This document shows, piece after piece, positions 33,117 to 62,444 of a stretch of DNA of 64,000 bases (position 1 is its first letter; each line of letters begins with the position of its first letter). The notes below the pieces were generated by a model that saw only the letters and a list, made by a program, of their open reading frames with translations, ran no database searches and was not told the DNA's origin. Made by a program: the position numbers and the translations under genes. Origin of the DNA: Flavobacterium sp. (lineage in GTDB: Bacteria; Bacteroidota; Bacteroidia; Flavobacteriales; Flavobacteriaceae); NCBI RefSeq assembly GCF_017744675.1, contig NZ_JAGIAV010000002.1:186001-250000 (forward strand), read 5' to 3'.

Positions 33117-33125
33117 TATAATTTT

Positions 33126-33557: not shown

Positions 33558-33639
33558 TTTTATGTTTTTTTTTCTGCCACGAATGCACGAATCTTATTTT
33601 TTCAATTTTATGAATTTATTGATGCAAATTTTATTTTAA

Positions 33640-33993: not shown

Positions 33994-34039
33994 ATTTCAA
34001 ATCATTAAAAATCAAATAATTATTTTCCTTTCTATAAAT

Positions 34040-34135: not shown

Positions 34136-34159
34136 CTTTCTAATCTGTGTAATCTGTGG

Positions 34160-35233: not shown

Positions 35234-35261
35234 TACTTCTTTAGCTCAGCCGTCGATTATA

Positions 35262-35405
35262 TTTTTTTTAAACACATAGAAATATAGTTTTTGCAACTTT
35301 AAAAAAGGCGTTTCACTACTCTAAATACACATAGATTATCTATGTGTGGAAACTTGTTTCTTCTAATCTCTTTTTCAAGATAAAGAACTATGTTTCTATG
35401 TTAAG
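35262..35405. repeat. 'acacatagaaatatag' inverted repeat element
   Basis: ACACATAGAAATATAG and CTATGTTTCTATG are the outer arms; ACACATAGATTATCTATGTGT is an inner hairpin, next to GGCGTTTCAC. Same family as 5940-6086 and 44836-44985. It separates moaD from moeB. Confidence 0.75.
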
Positions 35406-35416
35406 TTTTTTTCACA

Positions 35417-35656
35417 TTACCCTCCAGCAAACGGTGGCAATAAAGCCACAATATCGCTAGTCTGCAAAGTATAATCTGCCGATTTTGAAACTATTTTTTG
35501 ATTTACTGCAACGCTAAAAGTCAGTGATTCGAACTCGTATTTTTCGTTTAAATCCTGCAATAATTTTTGCAGTGATAGTTCTTCAGAAAAAGTTAGTTTT
35601 TCGAATTCACATTTTGTTTTTTCGGCAACAGCTCCAAAATATTTTACCTCGATCAT
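35417..35656 (-). CDS. moaD: Molybdopterin synthase sulfur carrier
   Basis: A 79-residue ubiquitin-like protein (MIEVKYFGAVAEKTKCEFE) with the required C-terminal Gly-Gly (ALLPPFAGG). It carries thiocarboxylate sulfur to MoaE after activation by the MoeB-rhodanese protein. It lies 1 nt after cobA on the minus strand. Confidence 0.93.
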   Translation of the reverse strand: MIEVKYFGAVAEKTKCEFEKLTFSEELSLQKLLQDLNEKYEFESLTFSVAVNQKIVSKSADYTLQTSDIVALLPPFAGG

Positions 35657-35657
35657 T

Positions 35658-36446
35658 TTATAAATTTAAATTTTGAAAAATGAATTCATCATCAAAATGT
35701 TCTTGAAAATATTCGGTCAATTTTGATGTATTTTTCACCACTTCACCAATAACAATAATAGCTGGTGATGAAATGTTTTTTTCGGATACCAATTTAGTAA
35801 TTGTGTTGATAGTTCCGATTACTTTTTGCTCTGAATTTTTCGTTCCGTTCTGAATAATCGCAACTGGAAGATCGTCTGTTCTATTCTTTTGATAAATCGA
35901 AATAATTTCATCCAGTTTATGCATTCCCATCAAAATCACTACTGTTGCAGCCGATTTTGATGCCAAATGAATATCATTCGACAATTTGTGATTGGAAGTT
36001 GTTCCTGTAATTACCCAAAAACTCTCTGCAATTTTACGTTCCGTCAGGCTAATTCCGGCACTAGCAGGAACACCCAAAGCAGACGAAATTCCTGGAACAA
36101 CAGCCGTTTCTAAACCAAATTTCACAGCATAATCAATTTCTTCGCTTCCTCTTCCAAAAACAAAAGAATCGCCGCCTTTTAAACGCACCACATGTCCGTA
36201 ACGGTTTGCCATCGAAACAATCAATTCGTTAATCTGATCTTGTGTATACGCATGGCAACCTAATCGTTTTCCAACAAAAACAATTTCTGCATTTGATGCA
36301 TATTCTAGCAACTCTTCGTTTACGAGGGCATCGTACAAAACGACATCGGCACTTTCTAAAGCTTTAATTGCTTTTAATGTGATCAATTCCACATCACCTG
36401 GACCTGCGCCTACAATCGTCAATTTTGGTGTTTTTAAACTTCGCAT
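35658..36446 (-). CDS. cobA: Uroporphyrinogen-III C-methyltransferase
   Basis: A 262-residue SUMT for the first step of siroheme synthesis. Motifs: LTIVGAGPGDVELITLKAIKAL, VLYDALVN, VVRLKGGDSFVFGRG and VPGISSALGVPASAGISLT. Siroheme is the prosthetic group of NirB, which explains its place in the Mo-cofactor run. The dehydrogenase/ferrochelatase partner (Met8/CysG-like) is not in the window. It starts 5 nt after mobA. Confidence 0.94.
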   Translation of the reverse strand: MRSLKTPKLTIVGAGPGDVELITLKAIKALESADVVLYDALVNEELLEYASNAEIVFVGKRLGCHAYTQDQINELIVSMANRYGHVVRLKGGDSFVFGRGSEEIDYAVKFGLETAVVPGISSALGVPASAGISLTERKIAESFWVITGTTSNHKLSNDIHLASKSAATVVILMGMHKLDEIISIYQKNRTDDLPVAIIQNGTKNSEQKVIGTINTITKLVSEKNISSPAIIVIGEVVKNTSKLTEYFQEHFDDEFIFQNLNL

Positions 36447-36451
36447 AGCCT

Positions 36452-37021
36452 CTAGGTTAAATTGATATTCAGGTCGTTTAATTCATCAGTAGAATTAATA
36501 TTGGTTAAATGAAAGTTTTCGCTTTCTTCGATATTGATAATCTGATGCGGCAGTTTCGCCAGCAAATCCATCATTTTTAATTCGTTTGAATCAATCGCTT
36601 CTTTAATGATTGGAACTATATTTTTAGAATAAATTCCGATTAACGGATGTGTTTTGCTTTCTGAGGCAAAAACTGTTATTTCAGCTTCTTTGGTATGTTT
36701 TGAAATTAACTCTTGCAACAATTCGGTCGAAATTAACGGAATATCACAGCTTAAAATCAGATTGAATTCGGTTTCAGAATGCGACAATGCCGTGTAAATT
36801 CCGCCCAACGGACCTTTATCTACAATTAAATCTGGAATTTTTTCATATTCCAAATAATCGTATTCTTTTGATGCCGTAACTAATTTAATGTTATCGGTAA
36901 TTGGTAAAATCGCCTGAATGATGTGCTCGATAAATGGTTTATCCTGAAACAAAACCAATCCTTTCTCTGACTGCATTCTGGTGCTTTTTCCTCCGCAAAG
37001 AATAAATACTGATATTTTCAT
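36452..37021 (-). CDS. mobA: Molybdenum cofactor guanylyltransferase
   Basis: A MobA of about 189 residues, started at 37021 (MKISVFILCGGKSTRMQSEKG); an in-frame Met seven codons upstream lies in repeat-like sequence. The nucleotide-binding motif LCGGKSTRM, DKGPLGGIYTAL and LSCDIPLIS are typical. It converts Mo-molybdopterin to the guanine dinucleotide form needed by bis-MGD enzymes such as the nitrate reductase at 25 kb. Confidence 0.92.
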   Translation of the reverse strand: MKISVFILCGGKSTRMQSEKGLVLFQDKPFIEHIIQAILPITDNIKLVTASKEYDYLEYEKIPDLIVDKGPLGGIYTALSHSETEFNLILSCDIPLISTELLQELISKHTKEAEITVFASESKTHPLIGIYSKNIVPIIKEAIDSNELKMMDLLAKLPHQIINIEESENFHLTNINSTDELNDLNINLT

Positions 37022-37024
37022 GGT

Positions 37025-37215
37025 TTCTTCTTTTTGTTTCATGTTTCACGTTTCATGTTTCAAATTTCAAGTTTCACGTTTCAAGTTTCAAGTTCCAAGT
37101 TTTCTCGGCTTGCGTTCCAGTGGCTGAAACCACTGGTTATGTTCAAAATATTTTCGTTTTCTATTTTTAACATAGCCCAAGGTTTCAACCTTGGGTACAC
37201 AATGCTCCTCATTTT
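37025..37215. repeat. Repeat mosaic before mobA
   Basis: A tandem-like CATGTTTCACGTTTCATGTTTCAAATTTC tract (given here only as a description of repeated GTTTCA words). It is followed by AACCACTGGTTATG and ACATAGCCCAAGGTTTCAACC hairpin words of the type often found in Flavobacterium intergenic DNA. No gene seen. Confidence 0.6.
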
Positions 37216-37229
37216 TTAATCTAAATTAT

Positions 37230-37976
37230 TTAAGGAAAAATCAATTTAACGCTTGCCATTAAAATCACTGTTCCTAAAACCATTTTTAATGTTCTGTTCG
37301 AAAAAGAACCGCTTCCGTAAAATCCGCCTAGCATTCCTCCGATAACTGCAATCGGAACTAAATAGAAACTTTCCATCGGAATTGTTTTTCCTCCTAGAAA
37401 GAATCCTAACATCCCAGCGAAAGAATTCACAAAAATGAATAAACTCGAAATTGCTGCTGATTCTTTAACCGAAGCCCATCCTAAAAACAATAGAATCGGA
37501 CTTAAAATAATTCCGCCGCCAATGCCTAACATTCCAGATAATAATCCGATAGCAAAACCAATGGTTAAGGCAAACGGAAGATTGATTTTTACTTCTTCTT
37601 TTTCTTTAAAATTAAATACCCCAAACAACCTCAACGCTGCAAAAACGAGTACAAGTCCTAAAACAATTTTATAAATCGCATTATCTAAAGTGATAAAACC
37701 TCCGATAAATGCCGCTGGAATCGACGCAATGGCAAACGGGTAAAAGAGTTTAGGCTTGAAATAATTATTTTTATAGTAAAACAAAAACGAAATACTAGAA
37801 ACAAACAAGTTTAGAAGCAACGCCGATGGTTTCATAATTGAAACCGGAAATGCAAAAATGCTCATCAACGCCAAATATCCTGAAGCTCCGCCATGTCCAA
37901 CGCTAGAATATAAAAATGCAATTACAATTAAGGCAAAGCTGAATAATAGTATATTTTCGGAACTTAGAAGATTCAT
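37230..37976 (-). CDS. TauE/SafE-family anion exporter
   Basis: A 248-residue membrane protein with about eight hydrophobic segments and the TauE/SafE internal repeat: SSVGHGGASGYLALMSIF near residue 25 and GMLGIGGGIILSPILLFLGW near 150. The family exports sulfite, sulfoacetate and other small anions. Its place between moeA and mobA suggests handling of nitrite, sulfite or molybdenum-related anions, but that is inference. Confidence 0.85.
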   Translation of the reverse strand: MNLLSSENILLFSFALIVIAFLYSSVGHGGASGYLALMSIFAFPVSIMKPSALLLNLFVSSISFLFYYKNNYFKPKLFYPFAIASIPAAFIGGFITLDNAIYKIVLGLVLVFAALRLFGVFNFKEKEEVKINLPFALTIGFAIGLLSGMLGIGGGIILSPILLFLGWASVKESAAISSLFIFVNSFAGMLGFFLGGKTIPMESFYLVPIAVIGGMLGGFYGSGSFSNRTLKMVLGTVILMASVKLIFP

Positions 37977-38098
37977 TTTTTTTGTTTGTTTTTGTTTTTG
38001 TTTTTGTTTGTTTCAGGTTTCAAGTTAAATGCGATATGTTTTTATTTATATAGCGCTCTTTATTCTTTATTCTTTATTCTTTATTCTTCAAAAAAACT

Positions 38099-39271
38099 CT
38101 AATCAATAGGCAGAATCGTAACCGACGCGCCTTTCTTTATACTTTCTATATCATGCGGAACGATTACTAAGCCATTCGCTACAGCGAAAGAATTCAGCAT
38201 GGCAGAACTTTGTCCGTCCAGAATTTCAACACTATTTTCATTGTACAATGCTTTTAAGAAAAGTGTTTTTCCGGTTGCATTCGTTATATCGTTATCTAGT
38301 TTTCGAACAATTTTCGGCAGGTGCGTATTAGAGAATCCCATTTTGTTTTTGACTGCAGGATATACATAAATATAAAAATTAGTCAATGATGACGCTGGAT
38401 TTCCTGGAAGCGCAAATACCAAAGTATCTTTTTTAGCTCCAAAAAACATTGGTTTTCCTGGTTTCTGATTGATCTTGTAAAAAAGTTCTTCAACTCCATT
38501 TTTCAATAACGCGTCTTTTACAAAATCATAATCTCCTACTGAAATTCCGCCAGAAATTAATACAATATCGTTCTTTTTTAAGATTGGCTGCAACGCTTTC
38601 TTTGTCGCTTTTAAATTGTCTTTAACTGTATGAACTTTTATTTTAGTAATTCCGATCGTCTGAAGCGCAGCTTGCAGCATTACGGAATTACTTTCGTAAA
38701 TTTTTCCTTTCGGAAGTTTTTTACCCGGTTTTACCAATTCGTTTCCTGTCACTAAAATAGCCACTTTAGGCTTTCTGTAAACCGTTATTTCTGTTATTCC
38801 TAAACAGGCTAAAAAACCAATTGCTGCTGGAGTAATTAAGGTATTGGCATCAAAAACAAGATCTTCTGCATTAATCTGTTCGCCTTTACTTCTTACATTG
38901 GCAAAAGTTTCTGGCATTTTTGCAATTAAAATAGAATCTCCATTTACCATTACATCCTCTTGCATTACTACAGTATCTGCATTTTTAGGAACATAAGCTC
39001 CAGTAAAAATACGAACAGCTTCGTTTTCTTTTAGTTTTATATTCTTATGGTCTCCTGCCTGAGAAATTCCCACGATGTCGAATTGATGTCTAATAGAACG
39101 AGTAAAAGCATAGCCATCCATGGCAGATTGGCGAAATGGAGGCATTGAAATTGGCGAATAAATCGTTTCTGCCAAAATATATCCTAATGCCTTATGAACA
39201 GGTATTTTTTGAGTTGACAAAACGGAACTATTTGCTGCTACAATTTCTAGCGCTTCTTTTACTTCTATCAT
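38099..39271 (-). CDS. moeA: Molybdopterin molybdotransferase
   Basis: A 390-residue MoeA that inserts molybdate into adenylated molybdopterin. Motifs: PPFRQSAMDGYAF, RIFTGAYVPKNADTVVMQED, SGGISVGDYDFVKDAL and ALPGNPASSLTNFY. It is the first gene of the minus-strand Mo-cofactor run and has the nitrate-box promoter at 39290-39316, so the run is probably coregulated with nirB, narK and nasA. Confidence 0.95.
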   Translation of the reverse strand: MIEVKEALEIVAANSSVLSTQKIPVHKALGYILAETIYSPISMPPFRQSAMDGYAFTRSIRHQFDIVGISQAGDHKNIKLKENEAVRIFTGAYVPKNADTVVMQEDVMVNGDSILIAKMPETFANVRSKGEQINAEDLVFDANTLITPAAIGFLACLGITEITVYRKPKVAILVTGNELVKPGKKLPKGKIYESNSVMLQAALQTIGITKIKVHTVKDNLKATKKALQPILKKNDIVLISGGISVGDYDFVKDALLKNGVEELFYKINQKPGKPMFFGAKKDTLVFALPGNPASSLTNFYIYVYPAVKNKMGFSNTHLPKIVRKLDNDITNATGKTLFLKALYNENSVEILDGQSSAMLNSFAVANGLVIVPHDIESIKKGASVTILPID

Positions 39272-39316: not shown

Positions 39317-39676
39317 AGTATTTATCATTAGGTTGGTTAAAAATTTAAGTTTCTTTTTAAGAGTCTATAAAATTACTCTAATTTATTCAAAATCAACTTT
39401 AAATTTAGATTTAGATTTTACAAATTAAAGTAGCCAAACTGGCATTTTACGACTTTTTAAATCTATTTCTTCAATTAAGAAATCTATTTAAAGCTTTTCT
39501 AGCGTTTAAAAATAAGTATAAAATACTACAATTTTAATTACCAGCTAAACTTTTTTTTAACATTTGTTTCAAACTCCAATATAGCGTTAAGTCTTTTAAA
39601 ATAAGGCAACACACAAGTATATAGCTCTTACACCACCTTTACAAAAGCATATTTTTCAAAAAAAAATCAACAAACT
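39317..39676. other. AT-rich intergenic region without a gene
   Basis: 360 bases between the divergent moeA and SusC units. I see only AT-rich DNA with scattered TTTAAA words and no credible ORF, repeat or RNA gene. Confidence 0.5.
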
Positions 39677-39731
39677 TTTGGTTTTTATTATATAAAATTT
39701 AACTTTGTCTATAGGATTAGTAGAGTTTAAA
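39677..39731 (+). promoter_or_regulatory. Sulfur-leader promoter and start-site element, copy 1
   Basis: TTTG (39677-39680), 19 nt, TAACTTTG (39700-39707), then TCTATAGGATTAGTAGAG and TTTAAA (39708-39731) over the expected start site. The element contains a loose inverted repeat CTAT-N7-GTAG. The same arrangement, with identical spacing, stands at 54191 and 61212. Confidence 0.85.
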
Positions 39732-39762
39732 AATAATATTTCAAACCATAAAAACTATTATT

Positions 39763-39849
39763 GTGAAAACAACAGAAAGCATATCGCATTACATTCTTCC
39801 TAAAAATTACACTTATAACACTATTTGTTGTATGTGTATCTGTTGTTAA
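39763..39849 (+). CDS. Cys-rich leader peptide, copy 1 (28 aa)
   Basis: A GTG-started 28-codon ORF, too short for routine calling. The peptide begins MKTTESISHY, continues ILPKNYTYNT and ends ICCMCICC. Two paralogues at 54262 and 61284 have exactly the same length and align without gaps (MKT start, SH, PKN/PKK, TYN, MC, CC end). Several differences are synonymous (TAC/TAT, ACT/ACA, ACT/ACG, TGT/TGC), which supports translation. The Cys codons form the 3' arm of a conserved hairpin (39811-39820 with 39826-39835). It precedes the first SusC/SusD-sulfatase operon. Ribosome stalling on Cys codons at low cysteine is the simplest model; a thiol- or metal-sensing peptide is an alternative. No ATG or Shine-Dalgarno is present. 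Confidence 0.72.
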   Translation: MKTTESISHYILPKNYTYNTICCMCICC

Positions 39850-40036
39850 TAATCTACTTTTTTATTTTGTTTGCCTTTAGAGTACATATCGAAGCAAATC
39901 ATAAAAAACACCACCAAAAATATTTACTGGATTTAACTAAAGAATTCTTCCGATGCATTCAAATGTATGGGGTCAGATTCTTGAAAGTATATCTAATATT
40001 CAACATTTTAAATAACTAACAACTAAAAAAACTAAA

Positions 40037-40069
40037 ATGAAAACAATGCAAACCTGTTGCTGTAAATAA
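40037..40069 (+). CDS. Second short Cys ORF in SusC leader 1 (MKTMQTCCCK)
   Basis: A ten-codon ORF from ATG to TAA encoding three consecutive Cys. The codons TGT TGC TGT are complementary (with one G:U pair) to CGGCAACAG in the following hairpin, so translation could change that fold. A ten-codon ORF lies at the same place in copy 2 but has one Cys only. Confidence 0.4.
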   Translation: MKTMQTCCCK

Positions 40070-40074
40070 AAAAA

Positions 40075-40143
40075 GCCATTTCTGCGGCAACAGAAATGGC
40101 AAGGCTTAAAGAACATTTATCACTAAATCAAGAACACTTTTAG
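40075..40143 (+). promoter_or_regulatory. Start-sequestering hairpin and uORF (MARLKEHLSL type), copy 1
   Basis: GCCATTTCTG (40075-40084) pairs perfectly with CAGAAATGGC (40091-40100), which contains the ATG of a 15-codon ORF (40096-40143, MARLKEHLSLNQEHF). The first ten residues are conserved in copy 2 with two synonymous changes (AGG/AGA, CTT/CTC), arguing for translation. Its stop touches a second hairpin, GAGTGCTG/CAGTGCTC (40143-40164). SusC starts 60 nt after the stop. Confidence 0.5.
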
Positions 40144-40202
40144 AGTGCTGTATAAACAGTGCTCAGGGCGTCTTGTTAATTACTTAAAACCAACACAAAG
40201 AA

Positions 40203-43200
40203 ATGAAAAAAAAGTTAAACATACACATACTGCTGTTTCTACTCTTGACAACGGCAGGAATACAAGCCCAGAATACCACCCCACTTATTCAATCCAAACT
40301 AGACGGAACTGTTGTAGATGCTATTACAAATCAGCCAATTATAGGAGCTTCTGTTACGATTAAAGGAACAACGCACGGAGTTGTGACAGATACAGAGGGA
40401 AAATTTTATTTTCAGACGGGACAGAAATTTCCTTATACTTTGATTGTAAGTTACATCGGATATAAAAAACTAGAAATAGTTGTGGAGAAAAATCCAGTTA
40501 TTATTAATCTTAAAGAAGAACGCCAAGAACTAGACGAACTAGTTGTTGTGGGTTACGGAACTCAAAAGAGAAAAGACATTACAGGATCTGTGGCTTCGGT
40601 TCCAAAAGCCAATTTGTCTCAGGTAACTTCTTCTGCAGACAATTTATTAAGAGGTGCTGTAGCCGGAGTTGTAGTTACACAAAGTTCTGGCCGTCCAGGC
40701 GCTTCTTCAAGTGTACGTATTCGCGGAGGAAACTCGATTACTGCTGGTAACGAACCGCTTTATGTGGTTGACGGAATCTTAATTTACAACGATAACAGCA
40801 ATAGTTCGGCAGGAGTAACTTATGCAGGTGCCTCTGTAAACGTTCTTTCTACTATTAATCCTGCTGATATTGAGTCTATAGAAGTTCTGAAAGACGCCTC
40901 GGCAACTGCTATTTATGGTTCTCGTGGTGCAAATGGTGTTGTAATTATTACGACTAAAAAAGGAACAAAAGGACAAGATAATATTTCGTACCAAGGCTAT
41001 TTCGGATTCCAAAATATTTCAAAGAAATTAAGACTAATGAACGCTAGCGAATGGGCAAGTTTAAGAAACGACGTTCAGGCTAGTATTGGTCAGGCTCCTT
41101 CTTTTTCTCCTGCGCAAATCGAAGCTTTAAAAACTTCTGGAAATTACGATTGGCAATCGGCAGCTTTTGTTACTGCAGCACCTGTTCAAAATCATAATTT
41201 ATCTTTCTCTGGAGGTGACGAAAAATCAAGATATGCCGTTTCTGCTGGGTATTTTGATCAGGATGGTATCGTTTTAGGATCTGATTTTAAACGTATTTCG
41301 CTTCGTGCCAACTATGAAAGAAACTATTCTCAAAAATTTAAATTTGGCGTAAATGCCAACTACACCAATTCAATTGCAAATGGTGTGGGAACCAATGGAG
41401 GTGCAGCAGCCGGAAGAAACCCAAACCCATTGGTTAGTGTGGTTTTGAATGCTCCAGTAGTCCCTATTAAAAATGCAGACGGAAGCTATAATGTAACCAA
41501 CAATCCTTATGCAACTTCTGTAAATGGATATGTTCCAAATCCGATTAATGATTTGGATAATACGACAAACGAAACCAAATTAAACCGAATCTTAACGAGT
41601 TTATTTGGCGAATATAAATTCAATAAAGAATTAACAGCAAAAGTGGCAGTAAGCGGTGACGTTTTAAATACAAAACAAAATTACTACGCACCATCGAACA
41701 CTACTACAGGTGCAGGAACAAAAGGATTAGCTTCTATTGGAGAAAGATTAGTGACTTCTGTTTTAAATGAAAACACGCTTACCTATAACACCAATTTCGG
41801 TCAAGATCATAAATTCACCGCTTTAGGAGGATACACGCTTCAATATACAAAAGGTGAAGTGGTCAATGCAGGAGCACAAACTTTTGTAAATGACAATACA
41901 ACTTACAATTCCATTCAGGATGGTGTTGCCGTAAAACCATATAGTGAAGCTTATGAAAGCGTACTAAAATCTTGGCTGGCCAGAGTAAACTATTCTTATA
42001 AAGGAAAATACAATTTCACATTATCTGGTCGTGCAGACGGTTCTTCTAGATTTGGTTCAGAATCGCTTTGGGGCTACTTCCCTTCTGCTGGATTTTCTTG
42101 GAATATTACTGATGAAGAATTTGCCAACAACATAAAAGGCGTAACGGAAGCAAAACTGAGAATTACAGCGGGAACAACAGGAAACCAAGAAATTGGAAAT
42201 TACCTTCCGCTAGCTTCAATGGGTTCTGTAAATTATTCTTTTGGAGGAACTTTATATACAGGTCTTGCTCCTACTCGATTGGCAAATCCAGATTTGAAAT
42301 GGGAAAAAACAAATCAGTATAATGTTGGATTGGATTTATCCTTATTAGACCGAAAAATCAATTTTGTTTTTGATGTGTATTACAAAAAGACAAAAGATTT
42401 ATTAATCAACGTTCCAGTGCCTTTGAGTTCTGGTTATGCAACAGTGCTTCAAAATATTGGCGGAGTTGAAAATAAAGGTTTCGAATTTGGTTTAACGACA
42501 GAAAATGTAAAAACAGAAAACTTTGCTTGGAATTCTAATCTTGTGTTTTCTCTTAACCGAAATAAAGTTACTGAGATTGGAAATGGTGTAGATCAGTTTT
42601 TTCCAGTAGTGCCAAACGGTTCTTTATTGCAACAGCAGCCTGTCACAGTAAAAGTAGGTTTGCCATTAGGAACTTTCTGGGGATACAGAACGAACGGAAT
42701 TTTCCAGACTCAGGAAGAAGTCAACACACAGCCAAAAATCAACAGTTTGGCCAACACAAAAGTGGGAGACAGAAAATATGTTGATACAAACGGAGATGGT
42801 GTAATTACAGCTCTTGATAAAGGAAATCTAGGAACTTCTCAGCCAAAATTTGTTGGAAGTTTCAGTAACACAGTTTCGTACAATGACTTTGATTTGAATT
42901 TCTCTTTTCAAGGAGCTTATGGAGGAAAAATCTTCAATGCTTTAAATCAGCAATTAGAAATTTCTACACTTGGAACTAACGCGGCAGCCACTTTAAATGA
43001 CCGTTGGACACCAACAAATCCAAGTAATGAAATTCCGAGAGCTTCTAGTTCGCCGCTTGGAATTGTTTCTGAACGCTACGTAGAAGATGCTTCTTTCCTA
43101 AGATTAAAATTAATCACTTTAGGATATACTTTGCCAAAAAGCACTTCTAAAAAATTAGGTGTAAAAGCGGTAAAAATATATGTATCAGCAGAAAATCTAG

Positions 43201-43334
43201 TTACATGGACCAAATATACTGGCTATGATCCGGAGGTAAGTTCATACGAACAAAACAATTTATATCCGGGAATTGACTTTGGTTCTTATCCAAACTCCAA
43301 AACATTCATCTCGGGCTTGAACGTAACTTTCTAA
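40203..43334 (+). CDS. SusC/RagA-type TonB-linked outer membrane transporter
   Basis: A 1043-residue TonB-dependent transporter. After the signal peptide (MKKKLNIHILLFLLLTTAGIQAQ) come a carboxypeptidase-D-like regulatory domain (TVVDAITNQPIIGASVTIKG), a TonB-box-like segment, and the plug with LRGAVAGVVVTQSSGRPGAS and VLKDASATAIYGSRGANGVVIITTK. The 22-strand barrel ends in a Phe-terminated last strand (GLNVTF). It works with SusD (43351) to import a ligand; the sulfatases downstream suggest a sulfate ester. It is preceded by the Cys-rich leader, unlike usual polysaccharide loci, which have sigma/anti-sigma or hybrid sensors. Confidence 0.93.
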   Translation: MKKKLNIHILLFLLLTTAGIQAQNTTPLIQSKLDGTVVDAITNQPIIGASVTIKGTTHGVVTDTEGKFYFQTGQKFPYTLIVSYIGYKKLEIVVEKNPVIINLKEERQELDELVVVGYGTQKRKDITGSVASVPKANLSQVTSSADNLLRGAVAGVVVTQSSGRPGASSSVRIRGGNSITAGNEPLYVVDGILIYNDNSNSSAGVTYAGASVNVLSTINPADIESIEVLKDASATAIYGSRGANGVVIITTKKGTKGQDNISYQGYFGFQNISKKLRLMNASEWASLRNDVQASIGQAPSFSPAQIEALKTSGNYDWQSAAFVTAAPVQNHNLSFSGGDEKSRYAVSAGYFDQDGIVLGSDFKRISLRANYERNYSQKFKFGVNANYTNSIANGVGTNGGAAAGRNPNPLVSVVLNAPVVPIKNADGSYNVTNNPYATSVNGYVPNPINDLDNTTNETKLNRILTSLFGEYKFNKELTAKVAVSGDVLNTKQNYYAPSNTTTGAGTKGLASIGERLVTSVLNENTLTYNTNFGQDHKFTALGGYTLQYTKGEVVNAGAQTFVNDNTTYNSIQDGVAVKPYSEAYESVLKSWLARVNYSYKGKYNFTLSGRADGSSRFGSESLWGYFPSAGFSWNITDEEFANNIKGVTEAKLRITAGTTGNQEIGNYLPLASMGSVNYSFGGTLYTGLAPTRLANPDLKWEKTNQYNVGLDLSLLDRKINFVFDVYYKKTKDLLINVPVPLSSGYATVLQNIGGVENKGFEFGLTTENVKTENFAWNSNLVFSLNRNKVTEIGNGVDQFFPVVPNGSLLQQQPVTVKVGLPLGTFWGYRTNGIFQTQEEVNTQPKINSLANTKVGDRKYVDTNGDGVITALDKGNLGTSQPKFVGSFSNTVSYNDFDLNFSFQGAYGGKIFNALNQQLEISTLGTNAAATLNDRWTPTNPSNEIPRASSSPLGIVSERYVEDASFLRLKLITLGYTLPKSTSKKLGVKAVKIYVSAENLVTWTKYTGYDPEVSSYEQNNLYPGIDFGSYPNSKTFISGLNVTF

Positions 43335-43350: not shown

Positions 43351-44823
43351 ATGAAAAAGATAATTATAACATTCCTTTTTAGTGCCGGACTATTAATATC
43401 GTGCACCGATCTTGAGGTAACGCCTACCTCTTTTGTAACCGAAGACAATTATTTTGTAACTCAAGATGATGCTACGGCTAGTGTAACTGCGGTTTACGCC
43501 TCTTTAAGTATTGATCCGGGCGAGCAGAGTTTGTTTGGACGAAATCTGTATTTCTTAACCGATATGGGATCTGATTATGCAGCGGCCGGAGTTTCTGCTA
43601 CAAACCCACAAGTTAGAGCAATGAGCAGTTTAACGCACGATGCTACTAATGACCGTGTTCAGGTAGCTTGGAGACAAATTTATAACGGAATCAATAGAGC
43701 TAATGTTTCGATTGATAATATTCCGAAAGTATCAGGTTCTGAAGTAATCAAAACTAGATTGATCAATGAAGCTAAATTCATCAGAGCATTACTTTATTTT
43801 CAAGCTGTTCGTCTTTGGGGCGGAGTACCGATTGTTTTACACGAATCAAAATCAATCAATTTAGGAGATTTAAAAACCAATCGTTCTACGGCTGAAGAGG
43901 TTTACACTCAAATCATAAAAGATTTAACCGATGCTGAAGCATTGCCAAAAACCTATACAGCGGCAGATGCTGGCCGTGCAACTTCTGGTGCTGCAAAAGC
44001 CATTTTAGCAAAAGTATACCTGACTAGAAAAGATTGGCCAAATGCTATTGCAAAATCAAGAGAAGTAATTAATGGCGGTTACGGATATGCTTTGTTTGAA
44101 GATTTTCAAGATATTTTCACTAAAACAAAAAAGAACGGAAAAGAGCATATTTTCTCTGTTCAATTTGAGCCAAATCAGGCTGGAAACGGATCGAGCGGAA
44201 GTACTTTCCAATCTACTTCTTTTACCGGATTTACAGCAACAGAACCAGCCGATATTATTTCAGATGTTGCGTTGTTTTACGATATCTATGCACCTGGAGA
44301 CAAAAGAAGAGATGTAAGTTATGCCAAACAGCTGCTAAATCCATCAACAGGAACGCTTTATACATTTCCTAAACCAATCTTCAAAAAATACTTGGATTTA
44401 AGCAATCTGGCAACTCCTGGAAATGTCGCGATCAACTTTCCTGTTATTCGTTATGCAGATATCCTTTTGTCTTTAGCGGAAGCTATAAATGAACAAGGCG
44501 CACCAACTGCGGAAGCTTACGAGCTAATCAATCAAGTGAGAAGAAGAGCATTCGGCAAACCCATCACAACTCCAGATCCTACAGTAGATCTTGTAGGATT
44601 AAATCAGACCACTTTTAGAGCTGCTATTCAGGAAGAGCGCAAAAAAGAATTTGTTCAAGAAGGACAGCGCTGGTACGATTTGGTAAGATGGGGAACATTG
44701 GTTACTGAAGTGAAAAAAGTAACAGCCAAAAACTCAGTTTCAGAAAGAAATAATCTGTATCCGATTCCGCAAAGCGAAAGAAATATCAATCCTGACGGTT
44801 TGCCTCAGAATCCTGGGTACTAA
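43351..44823 (+). CDS. SusD/RagB-type surface lipoprotein
   Basis: A 490-residue SusD-like protein, lipoprotein signal ending at Cys18 (SAGLLISCTDLEV). It has the helical TPR-type scaffold (INRANVSIDNIPKV, LINEAKFIRALLYFQAVRLWGGVPIV) and the C-terminal RagB signature (IQEERKKEFVQEGQRWYDLVRWG, LYPIPQSERNINP). It binds substrate on the cell surface as the lid of the SusC transporter that starts the operon, 16 nt upstream. Confidence 0.93.
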   Translation: MKKIIITFLFSAGLLISCTDLEVTPTSFVTEDNYFVTQDDATASVTAVYASLSIDPGEQSLFGRNLYFLTDMGSDYAAAGVSATNPQVRAMSSLTHDATNDRVQVAWRQIYNGINRANVSIDNIPKVSGSEVIKTRLINEAKFIRALLYFQAVRLWGGVPIVLHESKSINLGDLKTNRSTAEEVYTQIIKDLTDAEALPKTYTAADAGRATSGAAKAILAKVYLTRKDWPNAIAKSREVINGGYGYALFEDFQDIFTKTKKNGKEHIFSVQFEPNQAGNGSSGSTFQSTSFTGFTATEPADIISDVALFYDIYAPGDKRRDVSYAKQLLNPSTGTLYTFPKPIFKKYLDLSNLATPGNVAINFPVIRYADILLSLAEAINEQGAPTAEAYELINQVRRRAFGKPITTPDPTVDLVGLNQTTFRAAIQEERKKEFVQEGQRWYDLVRWGTLVTEVKKVTAKNSVSERNNLYPIPQSERNINPDGLPQNPGY

Positions 44824-54190: not shown

Positions 54191-54245
54191 TTTGGTTTTC
54201 ATTATAATAAAATTAACTTTGTCTATAGGATTAGTAGAGTTTAAA
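54191..54245 (+). promoter_or_regulatory. Sulfur-leader promoter and start-site element, copy 2
   Basis: TTTG (54191-54194), 19 nt, TAACTTTG (54214-54221), then TCTATAGGATTAGTAGAG and TTTAAA to 54245. The element is identical to copy 1; the spacer has diverged. Confidence 0.85.
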
Positions 54246-54261: not shown

Positions 54262-54348
54262 TTGAAAACAACAGCTTATACATCACATTACATTCTTCCT
54301 AAAAAAAACACTTATAACATCTTTGGTTATATGTGCATGTGCTGTTAA
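54262..54348 (+). CDS. Cys-rich leader peptide, copy 2 (28 aa)
   Basis: A TTG-started 28-codon ORF: MKTTAYTSHY, ILPKKNTYNI, FGYMCMCC. It is in exact register with copies 1 and 3. Cys22 and Cys23 of copy 1 are replaced by Gly-Tyr, while Cys25, Cys27 and Cys28 are kept, partly with different codons (TGC for TGT). The hairpin around the Cys codons is kept (54310-54318 with 54326-54334, one mismatch). It precedes the second SusC/SusD-sulfatase operon. Confidence 0.72.
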   Translation: MKTTAYTSHYILPKKNTYNIFGYMCMCC

Positions 54349-54464: not shown

Positions 54465-54497
54465 ATGACCATAATGCACTGCCCTATTCTTTCATAA
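54465..54497 (+). CDS. Second short ORF in SusC leader 2 (MTIMHCPILS)
   Basis: A ten-codon ORF at the same distance from the start-sequestering hairpin as the Cys-triplet ORF of copy 1. It has one Cys. Equal length and position suggest common origin, but the sequence is weakly conserved, so translation is uncertain. Confidence 0.3.
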   Translation: MTIMHCPILS

Positions 54498-54504: not shown

Positions 54505-54620
54505 CCATTTCTGCGGCAACAGAAATGGCAAGACTCAAAGAACATTTATCACTAAAGAAAGCCTCGGGAATTGAAGTCTCAATTTCTCGTAAAGCTTTAT
54601 TATTTAAATCCAAAAAAGTA
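54505..54620 (+). promoter_or_regulatory. Start-sequestering hairpin and in-frame uORF, copy 2
   Basis: CCATTTCTG (54505-54513) pairs with CAGAAATGG (54520-54528), which holds an ATG. That ATG opens a 32-codon in-frame extension (MARLKEHLSLKKASG and on) that runs into the SusC gene. The first ten residues equal the separate uORF of copy 1. I treat it as a regulatory leader, as it would bury the SusC signal peptide. Confidence 0.5.
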
Positions 54621-57600
54621 ATGAACAAGCAATTACACGCCTTTTTGTGGTTTTTTGCATTTTTAGTTTCAACTGAAATTAAAGCACAAAATACACAGCC
54701 ATTAATTAATTCGACCTTAAATGGTACCGTAGTAGATCAGGTAACCAATCAGCCTATTCCTGGCGTAACTATTCAAATCAAAGGAACAACTCACAGTTCG
54801 GTGACCGATTTAGATGGAAAATTCTATTTTCAGACAGGTCAAAAATTCCCTTATACTTTAATTGTTAGCTATTTAGGCTACGTTACAGCAGAGCATATAG
54901 CGACCAAAGATTTTATACAGATTTCATTAAAAGAAGACGTAAAAGAATTAAATGAAATCGTAATTATCGGATACGGCAGCACTTCTAAAAAAGATTATAC
55001 TGGAGCTGCCGAAACCGTGGCACAAATGTCATTAAAAGCAACCCAAAAAACACTCGAAAGTTCCCTGCAAGGTTCTGTTGCAGGAGTTAATGTAACACAG
55101 ACTTCGGGTCAGCCAGGCGCTGGAATGAGCATTCGTATTCGTGGCGGAAGCTCGATTCAAGGCGGAAACGAACCTTTGTACGTAATTGATGGTTTCCCAT
55201 TATACAATTCTGAAGTAACTTCTGGTGTTTTGAGCGGTACGCCAACCAATCCGCTTTCAACGATAAATCCGTCAGATATCGAATCGATTACGGTTTTAAA
55301 AGATGCTTCTTCAACTGCCATTTACGGTTCTAGAGGAGCAAACGGAGTGGTTATTATTACGACCAAAAAAGGCTCAAATAATGCTACAACTGTAAATTAC
55401 GATTTTACAATTGGTCAGCAATCGGTTCGCAAAAAAGTCGACGTGTTAGACGCGCAAGGATTTTCTAGATTGCGAAATGCGGCATTATACGATTCTAATC
55501 CGTCAGGCGGAACAAATCAATATCTAAGCGATGCCCAGATTGCGCAATTAGCAAAAGGAACCGATTGGCAGGACGCCGCTTTTCAGAAAGGCCTAACACA
55601 AAATCATCAATTGAGTGTTTCTGGCGGAAATAATCAAACGAAATATGCAGTTTCTGGAAACTATTACAATCAAGAAGGAATTATAAAAAATACAGGTTTT
55701 GAGCGTTTCAGCGGACGTGTAAACTTAAATTCTAAAATAAGCAGCAAAGCCCGATTCGGATTGAATTTAACTGTTGCAGAAACCAAATCTAAAGTTGCTC
55801 CAACTGGATTGGTAACCGCTTTATTAAGCATGCCTCCAACAGCAACGATTTACGAACCAGATGGAAGCTATACCTTAAGAAATCCGTTTGAGAATATTTT
55901 TGCCAATCCAATTGCGACTTTAAACGAGCGTAAAAACCAATCTATTACTGATCGTATTTTAGGAACTGTTTATGGCGAATATGACATTTTGAAAAATCTA
56001 GTCTTGAAAGTTTCATTTGGAACCGATATGATTTTCAACAAAGAAAAAAGTTATTTGCCGTCTAGCATTTACGAAGGTTCAATCACGAACGGAGAAGGAA
56101 AAATTGGAAATGCCGAATCTAGAAGCTGGTTAAACGAAAATACTTTGACCTACACGACTGTATTTGGCGAAAAACATCATTTGAATGCTCTGGCGGGTTA
56201 CACGCAGCAAAGTTCTACAAGAGAATTTAATACTTCGGGCTCGCAGCAATTTGTAAATGATATTACGTCTTATTATAGTTTACAAAGCGGAAATGTGGCA
56301 CTAATGCCAACTTCTGGCGAGAGCACTTGGGCGTTAAATTCTTTCTTAACCAGAGTAAATTACAATTACGATTCAAAATATTTCTTAACAGGAAGTTTAA
56401 GAGCCGATGGTTCTTCTCGTTTTGGAAAAGACAATAAATGGGGCTACTTCCCTTCTGTTGCGGCAGCTTGGCAAATCAGTAATGAAAATTTCTTTGCTCC
56501 TGTAAAAGACGTTGTGAATAGTTTAAAAATTAGAACGAGCTGGGGTACTACAGGAAATCAGGAAATTGGAGAATATCAGTCTTTATCGACTTTAACAAGC
56601 GTAAAATATCTTTTTGGAGATCAGATCTATACAGGTTTTACGCCTACGCGAATTGCAAACGACAATCTGGGTTGGGAATTAACCAATCAGTTTGATGCTG
56701 GTGTTGACGTTGGATTTTTCAATGATAAATTAAACTTGACTGTCGATGTTTATCGCAAAACGACAAAAGATTTATTGTTAGACGTTCAGCTTCCGTACAC
56801 GACTGGATTTACTTCTTCTTTACAGAATTTTGGTTCTGTTCGAAATCAGGGAGTCGAGTTTGGTTTGAATGCTTCTCTTGGCAATACGGCTTTCTCTTGG
56901 ACTTCGAACTTTAATATTGCCTTCAACCAAAACAAAATTATTGCTTTAGGAAATGGTGCCGAATATTACACTTTCGGAAATTATATTTTAAAAGTAGGAC
57001 AATCTCTAGGAACTTTTTACGGAGCGGTTACAGACGGAATTTTACAAACGAATGAAGTGGCTACAAAAGGCGTTTATACCGGAAATGCTACTCCAAAAGC
57101 AGGAGATCGTTTGTACAAAGACATCAATGGCGACGGTACTTTTACAACTGCCGCAGACAGAACAAGCATTGGCGATGCACAGCCAGATTTCGTTTTCGGA
57201 TTTTCAAACAACTTCACTTACAGAGGTTTTGAATTGGCCATTTTAGTAAATGGTTCTGTTGGAAATAAAATCCTTAACGGAAACCTGCAAGCGCTAGAAT
57301 TGTACAACGGACAGCAAAATGCTTCTACCTCAGCTCTAGATGCTTGGACACCAACAAATCCGAGTAATACAACCCCTAGAGCAAAATTAGATCCTGCACC
57401 TGTTTTTTCTAACCGATTTGTAGAAGATGGTTCATTTGTTCGTTTGAAAAATATCGCTTTGAGTTACAATCTACCGAAAAAAGTATCGGAGAAATTGAGT
57501 TTAACATCAGTAAAATTCCGTGTTATTGGAGAGAACTTATTGACTTGGACAAAATACACAGGTTACGATCCTGAAGTAACCAACGGAACCACGATTTCTC

Positions 57601-57668
57601 CAGGTACAGATACTGGAATTTATCCGGCTTCTAAAACCATTTCTGGCGGTTTAATTGTAACATTCTAA
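54621..57668 (+). CDS. SusC/RagA-type TonB-linked outer membrane transporter (second locus)
   Basis: A 1015-residue TonB-dependent transporter, started at 54621 where a proper signal peptide begins (MNKQLHAFLWFFAFLVSTEI, cleavage near KAQ). An in-frame ATG 96 nt upstream lies in the leader hairpin. Domains: carboxypeptidase-D-like (TVVDQVTNQPIPGVTIQIKG), plug (LQGSVAGVNVTQTSGQPGAG, VLKDASSTAIYGSRGANGVVIITTK), and barrel ending in GLIVTF. It is clearly paralogous to the first SusC, both in protein and leader. The ligand is probably a sulfate ester, given the sulfatase at 59348. Confidence 0.92.
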   Translation: MNKQLHAFLWFFAFLVSTEIKAQNTQPLINSTLNGTVVDQVTNQPIPGVTIQIKGTTHSSVTDLDGKFYFQTGQKFPYTLIVSYLGYVTAEHIATKDFIQISLKEDVKELNEIVIIGYGSTSKKDYTGAAETVAQMSLKATQKTLESSLQGSVAGVNVTQTSGQPGAGMSIRIRGGSSIQGGNEPLYVIDGFPLYNSEVTSGVLSGTPTNPLSTINPSDIESITVLKDASSTAIYGSRGANGVVIITTKKGSNNATTVNYDFTIGQQSVRKKVDVLDAQGFSRLRNAALYDSNPSGGTNQYLSDAQIAQLAKGTDWQDAAFQKGLTQNHQLSVSGGNNQTKYAVSGNYYNQEGIIKNTGFERFSGRVNLNSKISSKARFGLNLTVAETKSKVAPTGLVTALLSMPPTATIYEPDGSYTLRNPFENIFANPIATLNERKNQSITDRILGTVYGEYDILKNLVLKVSFGTDMIFNKEKSYLPSSIYEGSITNGEGKIGNAESRSWLNENTLTYTTVFGEKHHLNALAGYTQQSSTREFNTSGSQQFVNDITSYYSLQSGNVALMPTSGESTWALNSFLTRVNYNYDSKYFLTGSLRADGSSRFGKDNKWGYFPSVAAAWQISNENFFAPVKDVVNSLKIRTSWGTTGNQEIGEYQSLSTLTSVKYLFGDQIYTGFTPTRIANDNLGWELTNQFDAGVDVGFFNDKLNLTVDVYRKTTKDLLLDVQLPYTTGFTSSLQNFGSVRNQGVEFGLNASLGNTAFSWTSNFNIAFNQNKIIALGNGAEYYTFGNYILKVGQSLGTFYGAVTDGILQTNEVATKGVYTGNATPKAGDRLYKDINGDGTFTTAADRTSIGDAQPDFVFGFSNNFTYRGFELAILVNGSVGNKILNGNLQALELYNGQQNASTSALDAWTPTNPSNTTPRAKLDPAPVFSNRFVEDGSFVRLKNIALSYNLPKKVSEKLSLTSVKFRVIGENLLTWTKYTGYDPEVTNGTTISPGTDTGIYPASKTISGGLIVTF

Positions 57669-61211: not shown

Positions 61212-61266
61212 TTTGGATTTTATTTTAATAAATTTAACTTTGTCTATAGAATTGGTAGAGTTTAAA
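61212..61266 (+). promoter_or_regulatory. Sulfur-leader promoter and start-site element, copy 3
   Basis: TTTG (61212-61215), 19 nt, TAACTTTG (61235-61242), then TCTATAGAATTGGTAGAG and TTTAAA to 61266. It differs from copies 1 and 2 at two positions in the element. It drives the serine acetyltransferase-encapsulin unit. Confidence 0.85.
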
Positions 61267-61283: not shown

Positions 61284-61370
61284 TTGAAAACAGCAGAAAA
61301 AATATCGTCTCACATTTTTCCTAAAAATTATACATATAACACGCTTTGTTATATGTGTTTCTGTTGTTAA
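61284..61370 (+). CDS. Cys-rich leader peptide, copy 3 (28 aa)
   Basis: A TTG-started 28-codon ORF: MKTAEKISSH, IFPKNYTYNT, LCYMCFCC. Identity to copy 1 is high from PKN onward, with synonymous changes in Tyr16, Thr17 and Thr20. A perfect 10-bp hairpin (61332-61341 with 61347-61356) has the Cys22-Cys25 codons in its 3' arm. It lies 189 nt before the serine acetyltransferase gene, whose product starts cysteine synthesis, so a cysteine-responsive leader makes metabolic sense. Confidence 0.74.
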   Translation: MKTAEKISSHIFPKNYTYNTLCYMCFCC

Positions 61371-61391: not shown

Positions 61392-61410
61392 CCGATGCGA
61401 CTTTCATCGG
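61392..61410 (+). promoter_or_regulatory. Leader hairpin upstream of serine acetyltransferase
   Basis: CCGATG and CATCGG pair perfectly around a 7-nt loop, 21 nt after the leader stop. There is no T-run, so a role in leader folding rather than termination is more likely. Confidence 0.4.
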
Positions 61411-61559: not shown

Positions 61560-62444
61560 ATGAATTTATTTTACCAGAAAATAGCAAAGCAACATCAAGA
61601 ATTGGCGATTCTTCCTGAGAAAAAATTAATACATGAGTTTATAGATAATCTGTTTGCAATATTGTTTTCTAATACGTCAAAATCATTTGAATTTGAAGAA
61701 ACAATCAAATTTAAATTCAATCAGCTTGAAAAACAGTTTGACGAATTGGTTTCGAATTTTTCATCCAAAAAAGAACAGAAACAGCAGACAAAAATATTCT
61801 TTAATGCGATTCCACATTTGCATTACACAGCCATAAATGATGCCCAAACTATTTTTGCCAAAGATCCAGCTGCAAAGTCATTAGAAGAAGTGTTGTATTC
61901 TTATCCTGGATTTTTCGCTATTTCAATGTATCGATTTTCCCATCAATTATGGAAACAAGATTTAAGAATTTTAGCCCGGACGCTTTCAGAATATGCGCAT
62001 ATTAAAACAAGTATCGATATTCATCCAGGAGCTCAAATTGGAAATGATTTTGCAATCGATCACGGAACTGGAGTTGTTATTGGCGAAACCTCAATTATTG
62101 GCAACAATGTGCAAATTTATCATGGTGTCACTCTCGGTGCTTTGACAGTAAAAAAAGAAGATGCTTTTACAAAAAGGCATCCTACAATAGAAGACAATGT
62201 TATCATATATGCCAACAGTACTATCCTTGGCGGCCAGACCACAGTTGGAAAAGACTCTATTATTGGCGGCAATGTGTGTCTAACTTATAGTATTCCTTCT
62301 AATTCTGTTGTTTACCATAAAAATGAAATCAAAGTTAAAACTTTATCAAGAGAACCAAAAGGCATTGCTACAGACCATACGCTGCTAACTCTTAACTACG
62401 GCACAACCGAAAGATATTTATCTGTCAACGAGTCTTTTGAATAA
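61560..62444 (+). CDS. epsC: Serine O-acetyltransferase (EpsC type)
   Basis: A 294-residue enzyme that makes O-acetylserine from serine and acetyl-CoA, the carbon skeleton for cysteine. An all-helical N-terminal part (about residues 1-165) precedes a left-handed hexapeptide beta-helix with GAQIGNDFAIDHGTGVVIG, NNVQIYHGVTLG and GGQTTVGKDSIIGGN. His and Asp of DHGTG and His of YHGVTLG are the catalytic residues of the family. EpsC-type enzymes are frequent partners of family 2A encapsulins. It is 60 nt upstream of the shell gene and downstream of the Cys-rich leader. Confidence 0.92.
   Translation: MNLFYQKIAKQHQELAILPEKKLIHEFIDNLFAILFSNTSKSFEFEETIKFKFNQLEKQFDELVSNFSSKKEQKQQTKIFFNAIPHLHYTAINDAQTIFAKDPAAKSLEEVLYSYPGFFAISMYRFSHQLWKQDLRILARTLSEYAHIKTSIDIHPGAQIGNDFAIDHGTGVVIGETSIIGNNVQIYHGVTLGALTVKKEDAFTKRHPTIEDNVIIYANSTILGGQTTVGKDSIIGGNVCLTYSIPSNSVVYHKNEIKVKTLSREPKGIATDHTLLTLNYGTTERYLSVNESFE

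What the first reader, a model, noticed from the sequence alone, without database searches (positions are those of the whole stretch)
39763..39849. A previously unannotated Cys-rich 28-aa leader peptide family; copy 1 before a SusC/SusD-sulfatase operon
Three ORFs (39763, 54262, 61284) of exactly 28 codons, in gap-free alignment, lie just after three matching promoters. All start with GTG or TTG followed by AAA ACA, keep SH, PK, TYN and MC, and end in Cys-Cys-stop. Differences include synonymous third-base changes, which point to translated ORFs rather than only structured RNA. Copy 1 ends ICCMCICC: five Cys among the last seven residues. The Cys codons form the 3' arm of a hairpin that a stalled ribosome would break. 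Cys-codon leader peptides are known as a principle (polycysteine leader ORFs in mycobacteria); I do not know of this family being described in Bacteroidota.
Basis: partly seen in the sequence, partly recalled or inferred. Interest (0 to 1): 0.93.

Follow-up and report, generated by a model that had tools for sequence, protein, structure and literature searches.

The report
Cysteine-counting leader mini-genes in Flavobacterium
Flavobacterium genomes carry, just upstream of sulfur-scavenging genes, a conserved 28-codon mini-gene that ends in cysteine codons and likely works as a switch, predicted to let those genes be made only when the cell runs short of cysteine.

Summary
All three 28-codon ORFs are real, and they are the only short ORFs of their kind in the window (3 found; Markov control mean 0.27). 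Relatives occur in part of one genus. Of 63 distinct sites with the same promoter-proximal block, 58 carry the ORF, each upstream of a SusC transporter (32), a sulfatase (17) or the serine acetyltransferase EpsC (9). Of 57 read without a Cys filter, 54 are 28 codons and the rest 27 or 29; starts are TTG or GTG; 56 end Cys-Cys.

Three things were missed. (1) The block by the promoters looks like a DNA operator: its best matches in the sulfate-assimilation cluster lie before an Rrf2-regulator gene and the cysHDN operon, where I found no such leader ORF. (2) 33 of 38 SusC-linked copies have a second, shorter cysteine mini-ORF (for example MKTMQTCCCK) just before a near-invariant hairpin, D. (3) The ORF2 cysteine codons can pair with D in an alternative fold.

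Best reading: a cysteine-responsive leader-peptide attenuator, doubled before most SusC genes. Cysteine response, ribosome stalling and termination are untested. Cysteine attenuators are known in mycobacteria; the open-access papers searched described none in Bacteroidota.

The parts
39700..39707 (+). -7 box TAACTTTG of the copy 1 promoter
   Evidence: sequence; TAnnTTTG at -12 to -5 is the sigma-A -7 box in F. psychrophilum (passage of PMC9723704)
39707..39724 (+). predicted Rrf2-type operator GTCTATAGGATTAGTAGA, copy 1
   Evidence: 18-column matrix from 52 leader sites; its three best hits in the 19-kb cys cluster are before the Rrf2 gene and in the TauE/TauE-cysHDN intergenic region
39763..39849 (+). 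ORF1 copy 1, VKTTESISHYILPKNYTYNTICCMCICC*
39870..39898 (+). hairpin after ORF1 (outer stem TTTGC/GCAAA; TTCGT/ACGAA in relatives)
   Evidence: 2 of 5 pairs have changes on both sides, 93.8% of cells paired in 16 sequences; mean best-helix score of 53 copies 16.1 against 12.6 (sd 3.0) shuffled
40037..40069 (+). ORF2 copy 1, MKTMQTCCCK*
   Evidence: 33 of 38 SusC-linked D modules have an upstream mini-ORF with adjacent Cys codons; TGT 55, TGC 36
40075..40100 (+). hairpin D, GCCATTTCTG-CGGCAA-CAGAAATGGC
   Evidence: exact 18-base core in 31 of 150 genus genomes
40129..40175 (+). helix P (CAAGA/TCTTG) enclosing hairpin F (40143-40164)
   Evidence: F: 4 of 9 pairs with changes on both sides, 99.3% of cells paired; P: 1 of 5, 97.5%
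40203..43334 (+). SusC-type TonB receptor; then SusD (43351-44823) and sulfatase (45028-46944)
   Evidence: Pfam
54214..54221 (+). -7 box, copy 2; operator 54221-54238
54262..54348 (+). ORF1 copy 2, LKTTAYTSHYILPKKNTYNIFGYMCMCC*
54465..54497 (+). ORF2 position, copy 2, MTIMHCPILS* (one Cys only: degenerate or diverged)
54505..54528 (+). hairpin D, copy 2
54525..57668 (+). SusC-type receptor as listed (the longest start lies inside D; an in-frame ATG at 54621 is likelier); SusD 57679-59127; sulfatase 59348-61000
   Evidence: Pfam; frame check
61235..61242 (+). -7 box, copy 3; operator 61242-61259
61284..61370 (+). ORF1 copy 3, LKTAEKISSHIFPKNYTYNTLCYMCFCC*
61392..61410 (+). hairpin after ORF1, copy 3 (CCGATG/CATCGG)
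61560..62444 (+). serine O-acetyltransferase EpsC/CysE; then family 2A encapsulin shell (62505-63425) and an aminotransferase class-V gene from 63409 (cysteine-desulfurase-type by inference)
   Evidence: NCBIfam and Pfam

Best explanation
The three ORFs belong to a Flavobacterium family of 27- to 29-codon leader ORFs ending in cysteine codons, which likely act as cysteine sensors: a ribosome short of charged tRNA-Cys would pause on those codons and is predicted to let transcription or translation proceed into the sulfur-scavenging operon. Shown by comparison: the reading frame, the Cys-Cys ending and the place before SusC, sulfatase or EpsC genes are conserved; a motif shared with the sulfate-assimilation cluster and its Rrf2 gene overlaps the predicted start of transcription; a hairpin with covarying pairs follows ORF1 in the SusC group. 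Inferred: an Rrf2 regulator gates initiation; with cysteine plentiful, the ribosome would leave ORF1 quickly, the hairpin and C-rich, G-poor RNA after it would favour premature termination (Rho or intrinsic, undecided), and a pause on the Cys codons would block this. Before most SusC genes there is a second stage: ORF2 with two to four Cys codons ends 7-12 nt before the CATTTCTG arm of hairpin D, and those same codons can pair with D's loop and 3' arm instead, so the ribosome's position would decide which fold forms. Which fold favours expression is not known.
For: 58 of 63 distinct operator regions carry ORF1, before SusC 32, sulfatase 17, EpsC 9; the 5 without it are the cysH-cluster site (2), a fourth SusC locus that has ORF2+D only (2), and one unidentified gene. 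The unbiased pattern search found 53 places in 30 genomes; the 30 fetched, one per genome, are all of these three kinds. Lengths 28:54, 29:2, 27:1; last two residues CC in 56 and CF in 1 of 57; starts TTG 46, GTG 11, ATG 0, although ATG was allowed. Other sense frames have stops in 53 and 52 of 53 unique 28-codon ORFs. pS/pN 0.375/0.186 in 51 unique ORFs, against 0.203/0.223 and 0.308/0.195 read in the other two frames; 0.51/0.11 in codons 21-28; stops TAA 50, TAG 2, TGA 1 of 53. ORF2 with adjacent Cys codons in 33 of 38 SusC-linked D modules, with synonymous TGT/TGC swaps. Structure in 16 leaders: 96.2% of cells paired; covariation score 0.198 against 0.138 shuffled, 0 of 500 as high, and 0.055-0.062 slid. 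The two drawn folds of the D region lie within 3 kcal/mol in 11 of 18 sequences: -29.6 and -31.5 in copy 1.
Against: No expression, ribosome-profiling or cysteine-response data. No strong intrinsic terminator: the hairpin after ORF1 is AU-rich and its U-tract is weak or absent in many copies; its fold energy is only mildly below shuffles (mean z -1.0; 25 of 53 below -1). C>G after ORF1 is modest (17.1% C, 10.7% G; 28 intergenic controls 14.8% and 13.6%) and is seen in ORF1 itself (17.1%, 12.0%). No antiterminator partner was found for that hairpin. In one search the number of pairs changed on both sides (10 against 9.0) and of pair types (29 against 32.6) do not exceed shuffles; only the cell counts and the score do, and the structure was derived from these sequences. 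Pairing of ORF2 codons with D3' has no pair changed on both sides in 18 sequences and looks lost in L124 (by eye). The two folds differ by over 3 kcal/mol in 7 of 18, and the computed minimum is lower than both drawings. ORF2 lacks CC in 5 of 38 SusC copies, including copy 2, and in 14 of 14 sulfatase copies. The ORF1 stem shows little covariation. Coding signal in codons 2-20 is mild (pS 0.34, pN 0.22), and differences by codon position are 4.7, 6.2, 6.9. ATG is invariant at codon 24 (53 of 53), so a 5-codon ORF MCxCC* could be the translated unit.
Confidence: 0.72

Rival explanations
1. Arrest peptide: the nascent chain itself (conserved ILPKKYTYN..CYMCxCC) stalls the ribosome in response to a small sulfur metabolite, as TnaC does with tryptophan, rather than the ribosome waiting for charged tRNA-Cys.
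For: Residues well before the Cys codons are also conserved (K2, T3 and M24 invariant in the 16 of A1; ILP, K, TYN frequent) and Cys codons sit directly before the stop.
Against: Codons 2-20 are only mildly constrained (pN 0.22, pS 0.34); part of TYN..CYM also forms an RNA hairpin (helix 2); the RMCCCC subtype (L008, L021, L033) keeps little upstream of M24; the ORF of L102 has Ile at position 2 (read by eye).
Confidence: 0.12
2. The ORF is a small functional protein (for example a metal- or redox-binding Cys peptide), not a regulator.
For: Frame and Cys residues conserved.
Against: In 58 of 58 a gene for SusC, sulfatase or EpsC starts 215-552 nt after the start of the operator match; non-ATG start in the 57 read; no family match; Cys number varies from 2 to 6.
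Confidence: 0.06
3. Control is entirely by the Rrf2-type operator at initiation and by the structured RNA near SusC; the Cys ORFs are by-products of RNA or DNA constraint.
For: The operator is strongly conserved; hairpins D, P and F are conserved and part of them covary; parts of ORF1 fold.
Against: TGC/TGT swaps with Cys kept at ORF1 columns 25 (25/24), 27 (6/45) and 28 (12/39) and in ORF2 while D stays unchanged (L022, L080, L081); in-frame-only length changes.
Confidence: 0.08

Closest known systems
Polycysteine-encoding leaderless short ORFs of mycobacteria (Canestrari 2020; title and one citing sentence seen in passages of PMC13236596; the paper itself is not held)
   Same: By its title: short ORFs with Cys codons that act as cysteine-responsive attenuators of operons.
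   Different: Here the ORF starts about 36-51 nt after the predicted transcription start with TTG/GTG, not leaderless. The organism is a Flavobacterium; the targets include SusC/SusD uptake, sulfatases and an encapsulin operon; most SusC copies have a second Cys ORF, and there is a predicted Rrf2-type operator.
Tandem attenuators of Salmonella mgtCBR (mgtM, mgtP; PMC3641672, abstract and outline seen)
   Same: Two short ORFs in one leader, one rich in codons for one amino acid, each tied to stem-loops.
   Different: There the two ORFs answer two signals (ATP, proline); here both ORFs point to cysteine. No sequence relation was tested.
Leader-peptide attenuation inferred in Flavobacterium psychrophilum (PMC9723704, section 19 and passages read)
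   Same: Same genus; attenuation by leader peptides proposed from transcriptome data for amino-acid biosynthesis operons.
   Different: That section names no cysteine leader, sulfatase or SusC case; its supplements were not read.
E. coli tnaC (recalled; the PMC8429421 listing seen)
   Same: Sensor residues near the end of the ORF; regulation by a ribosome parked near the stop (recalled).
   Different: tnaC senses free tryptophan through the nascent chain; Rho dependence here is a guess.

Membership tests
Amino-acid-codon leader-peptide attenuators (trp/his type) | short translated-looking ORF with clustered codons for the pathway's amino acid | tested here: met
Amino-acid-codon leader-peptide attenuators (trp/his type) | lies in the leader of genes for that amino acid's metabolism | tested here: met
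   58 of 58 before SusC/sulfatase/EpsC; EpsC makes the cysteine precursor (established knowledge); the sulfur role of SusC is inferred from its sulfatase neighbours
Amino-acid-codon leader-peptide attenuators (trp/his type) | mutually exclusive terminator and antiterminator controlled by ribosome position | tested here: inconclusive
   hairpin after ORF1 but weak U-tract and no antiterminator found; alternative D pairing in the ORF2 region
Amino-acid-codon leader-peptide attenuators (trp/his type) | expression rises on starvation for the amino acid | not testable with these tools
   no expression data
Mycobacterial polycysteine leaderless sORFs | leaderless: start codon at the transcription start | tested here: not met
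   predicted start of transcription 36-51 nt before TTG/GTG in the three copies (spacing from PMC9723704); the transcription start itself is a prediction
Mycobacterial polycysteine leaderless sORFs | cluster of Cys codons | tested here: met
   4 or more Cys in 52 of 57
NCBIfam/Pfam small-peptide families | match of any of 16 family members | tested here: not met
   no match at E up to 1
Known Rfam cis-regulatory RNA | match in the leader region | tested here: not met
   none in the three leaders at gathering score; for copy 1 only two sub-threshold hits, E 2.1 and 4.1, over 39600-40300
Rrf2-type operator (shared block) | same motif at the regulator's own gene and at sulfur-assimilation promoters | tested here: inconclusive
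   top three hits of 19 kb lie at L129:6258 (before Rrf2), 7963 and 7749 (scores 10.6, 8.4, 6.7), but the highest of 20 shuffles is 8.6, so only the first exceeds it; similar sites at the cysH locus of L134-L136, L138 and L139, weaker in L133 and L137, absent in the rest of 15 relatives. Binding untested.

The most novel reading that the evidence does not exclude
A two-gate sulfur circuit new to Bacteroidota: an Rrf2 regulator licenses transcription of organosulfur uptake, sulfatase and sulfur-storage encapsulin operons, and tandem cysteine-codon mini-ORFs then check cysteine charging twice. In front of SusC the second ORF's Cys codons do double duty as the sensor codons and as one strand of a bistable RNA switch with hairpin D.
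Probability: 0.42. Interest if true: 0.86.

Novelty: new variant of a known kind. Interest (0 to 1): 0.74.

Why it matters
To my knowledge (recalled, not searched exhaustively) how Bacteroidota control sulfur scavenging is poorly known, and SusC/SusD systems are usually thought of as answering to sugars. A leader-peptide switch tied to cysteine would link a SusC/SusD uptake system, sulfatases and an encapsulin operon of the sulfur type to the cell's own cysteine supply. It makes a directly testable prediction in easily grown soil flavobacteria, and offers a compact cysteine-responsive control element.

Tried and rejected
RNA-only reading of the promoter-proximal block: dropped, because similar motifs sit before the Rrf2 gene and cysHDN, where no Cys-ending ORF was seen. 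Hits outside the genus: G240 and G176 (R1, E 2e-4 and 3.5e-4), G549 (R1, 9.2e-4) and G211 (R2, 9.5e-4) were read and lie in or at the start of other genes or in unrelated sequence, with no Cys-ending ORF seen. The peptide profile gave 34 non-genus genomes at E 0.006-0.1; 13 loci (L150-L162) were fetched and read, none a full ORF ending CC; the rest were not read. D as an intrinsic terminator: dropped, no U-tract. D as a repeat scattered in the genome: dropped, since exact D occurs in 31 of 150 genus genomes, the 30 with an operator match plus G091, whose operator has an inserted base and which also has ORF1. One-mismatch D hits read in L104, L105 and L106 show no leader context; not all one-mismatch hits were read. 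Rfam on L101/L103: nothing at E up to 0.1. One search listed sequences for an alignment that was not made (6 loci left out). Searches used ORFs pre-filtered for a Cys in the last three residues; one search repeats the length, ending and start counts without that filter. Its stop counts use only 28-codon ORFs, which are open in frame by construction. Its start-motif search missed L033, added by hand (57+1) and counted. Alignments used subsets: A1 16 peptides, A2 27 of 53 unique ORFs, A3 20 of 52 D regions, A4 16 and A5 18 SusC leaders. EpsC-linked loci L034-L068 were fetched by an EpsC query, so the share of EpsC (9) is not an unbiased frequency. In one search the D loops admitted were three that I had already seen.

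Full report
What is there. The window is a 64-kb stretch of a 5.5-Mb genome (G000, contig C11) whose relatives by EpsC search are mostly Flavobacterium species. The three ORFs of the finding are exactly as described, apart from one register slip ('SH' in copy 3). They are the only ORFs of 15-45 codons in the window that end Cys-Cys with three or more Cys in the last seven residues; 30 random second-order Markov sequences of the same size give 0.27 on average.

Surroundings. Copy 1 precedes SusC, SusD and a sulfatase; further on come a DUF1254/DUF1214 pair, a fatty-acid-hydroxylase-like gene, a rhodanese-thioredoxin protein, a second sulfatase and a YeiH-type transporter. Copy 2 precedes another SusC, SusD and sulfatase. 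Copy 3 precedes serine O-acetyltransferase (EpsC), a family 2A encapsulin shell protein and an aminotransferase class-V protein. An encapsulin family of sulfur metabolism has been described (PMC8049743; title, start of abstract and term counts seen); that its cargo is a cysteine desulfurase is recalled.

The family. A promoter-proximal pattern at up to 3 mismatches finds 53 places in 30 of 150 genus genomes, and no reversed-pattern control match in the list. Among all loci collected there are 63 distinct sites at up to 6 mismatches; 58 are followed by ORF1. The first downstream gene is SusC in 32, sulfatase in 17 and EpsC in 9. The five others are two cysH-cluster sites, two copies of a fourth SusC locus (below) and one unidentified gene. 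Without any Cys filter, 57 start motifs give lengths 28 (54), 29 (2) and 27 (1), all in-frame changes; 56 end CC and one CF; starts are TTG 46, GTG 11, ATG 0. The other two sense frames hold stops in 53 and 52 of 53 unique 28-codon ORFs. On the Cys-filtered set (51 ORFs) pS is 0.375 and pN 0.186; read in the other frames 0.203/0.223 and 0.308/0.195; for codons 2-20, 0.34 and 0.22; for codons 21-28, 0.51 and 0.11. Cys codon 25 is TGC in 25 and TGT in 24. Outside the genus I found no credible relative: R1 in 199 family and 246 order genomes, R2 in 249, the peptide profile in 249 (overlapping samples); the four model hits outside the genus and 13 of the profile hits were read and rejected.

The promoter block is probably an operator. 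TAnnTTTG is the flavobacterial sigma-A -7 box at -12 to -5 (PMC9723704), which puts the start of transcription inside CTATAGRATTAGTAGA. A matrix from 52 leader sites was run over a 19-kb stretch around cysH in the same genome. Its three best hits lie before an Rrf2-family regulator gene (PF02082, E 4e-37; the site overlaps the end of the gene upstream) and in the intergenic region of divergent TauE and TauE-cysH-cysD-cysN genes. Only the first exceeds the best of 20 shuffles (10.6, 8.4, 6.7 against 8.6), but position, and recurrence at the cysH locus of five of 15 relatives, support all three. No Cys-ending ORF was seen between these sites and the Rrf2 and TauE-cysHDN starts, and ORF1 models find only the three window copies in this genome. 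I infer that one Rrf2 regulator controls both sets; binding is untested.

The second module. Between ORF1 and SusC lies a hairpin, D (GCCATTTCTG-CGGCAA-CAGAAATGGC). Its 18-base core is found exactly in 31 of 150 genus genomes: the same 30 that have the operator pattern, plus G091, which has the ORF and an operator with an inserted base. Before D, 33 of 38 SusC-linked modules have a mini-ORF with adjacent Cys codons (MKTMQTCCCK, MKLMCCK, MKKRMCCR, MKRSCC), stop codon 7-12 nt from the CATTTCTG arm; none of 14 sulfatase-linked modules does. EpsC copies read had no D. The own genome has a fourth SusC locus (C13:466164) with an operator at 4 mismatches, no ORF1, ORF2 MKKRMCCR and a D variant. In G060 an ORF2-D module (L124) lies inside an operon between sulfatase and SusC. 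Window copy 2 has a diverged ORF2 with one Cys.

RNA structure. In 16 SusC leaders, eight helices were counted. The hairpin after ORF1, a hairpin further on, helix P and hairpin F near SusC have pairs changed on both sides; D never varies in this set, but base pairs at its foot covary in a wider set (3 of 10 pairs in 20 sequences). Covariation score 0.198 against 0.138 shuffled (0 of 500 as high) and 0.055-0.062 when slid; the numbers of double-changed pairs (10 against 9.0) and of pair types (29 against 32.6) do not exceed shuffles. In the D-to-start region the favoured consensus is a different fold, in which the Cys codons of ORF2 pair with D's loop and 3' arm (11 pairs, 96.5% of cells paired, no double changes). 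The two drawn folds lie within 3 kcal/mol in 11 of 18 sequences (-29.6 and -31.5 in copy 1). The unconstrained minimum, lower than both, has D in 13 of 18; blocking everything up to D, as a paused ribosome might, gives D in 18 of 18.

How it most likely works. Cysteine shortage would slow the ribosome at the end of ORF1, next to the hairpin and the C-rich, G-poor stretch (C>G in 51 of 53, mean 17.1% and 10.7%; controls 14.8% and 13.6%), and so spare the transcript from premature termination; before most SusC genes the same question is put again by ORF2 and D. The sense of the D switch and the type of termination are not settled. The invariant ATG at codon 24 leaves open that only MCxCC* is translated.

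Known or new. Cys-codon attenuators are known in mycobacteria and tandem attenuators in Salmonella; in Flavobacterium, leader-peptide attenuation has been proposed for amino-acid operons. Paper searches on cysteine leaders in Bacteroidetes/Flavobacterium (open-access library only, listings read) gave no description of this family. I rate it a new variant of a known kind.

Noticed in passing
G000 C13:466164 (L101, L131): Fourth SusC locus outside the window with an operator-like site, ORF2 MKKRMCCR and a D variant but no ORF1.
   Followed up: partly
window 40096-40143 and 54525-54620: A third short ORF starting with the ATG in D's 3' arm (MARLKEHLSL..) is in frame with SusC in copy 2; it is not kept in several sulfatase-type loci, so probably not coding.
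   Followed up: partly
window 62505-63425 and beyond: EpsC, family 2A encapsulin and an aminotransferase class-V gene in a row: a sulfur-storage-type operon by inference.
   Followed up: partly
window 6122-6199 (-): Flavo-1 RNA (Rfam RF01705, 57.5 bits), overlapping a listed ORF on the other strand.
   Followed up: no
window 25040-39271: Molybdopterin oxidoreductase-reductase fusion, a rubredoxin protein with a weak sulfite/nitrite-reductase half domain, and molybdenum-cofactor genes beside a TauE-type exporter, next to the sulfur cluster.
   Followed up: no
ORF1 codon 24 and ORF2: A Met codon sits at codon 24, just before the last Cys group, in 53 of 53 unique 28-codon ORF1, and inside most ORF2; it may be a second sulfur-amino-acid sensor codon or an internal start.
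   Followed up: no
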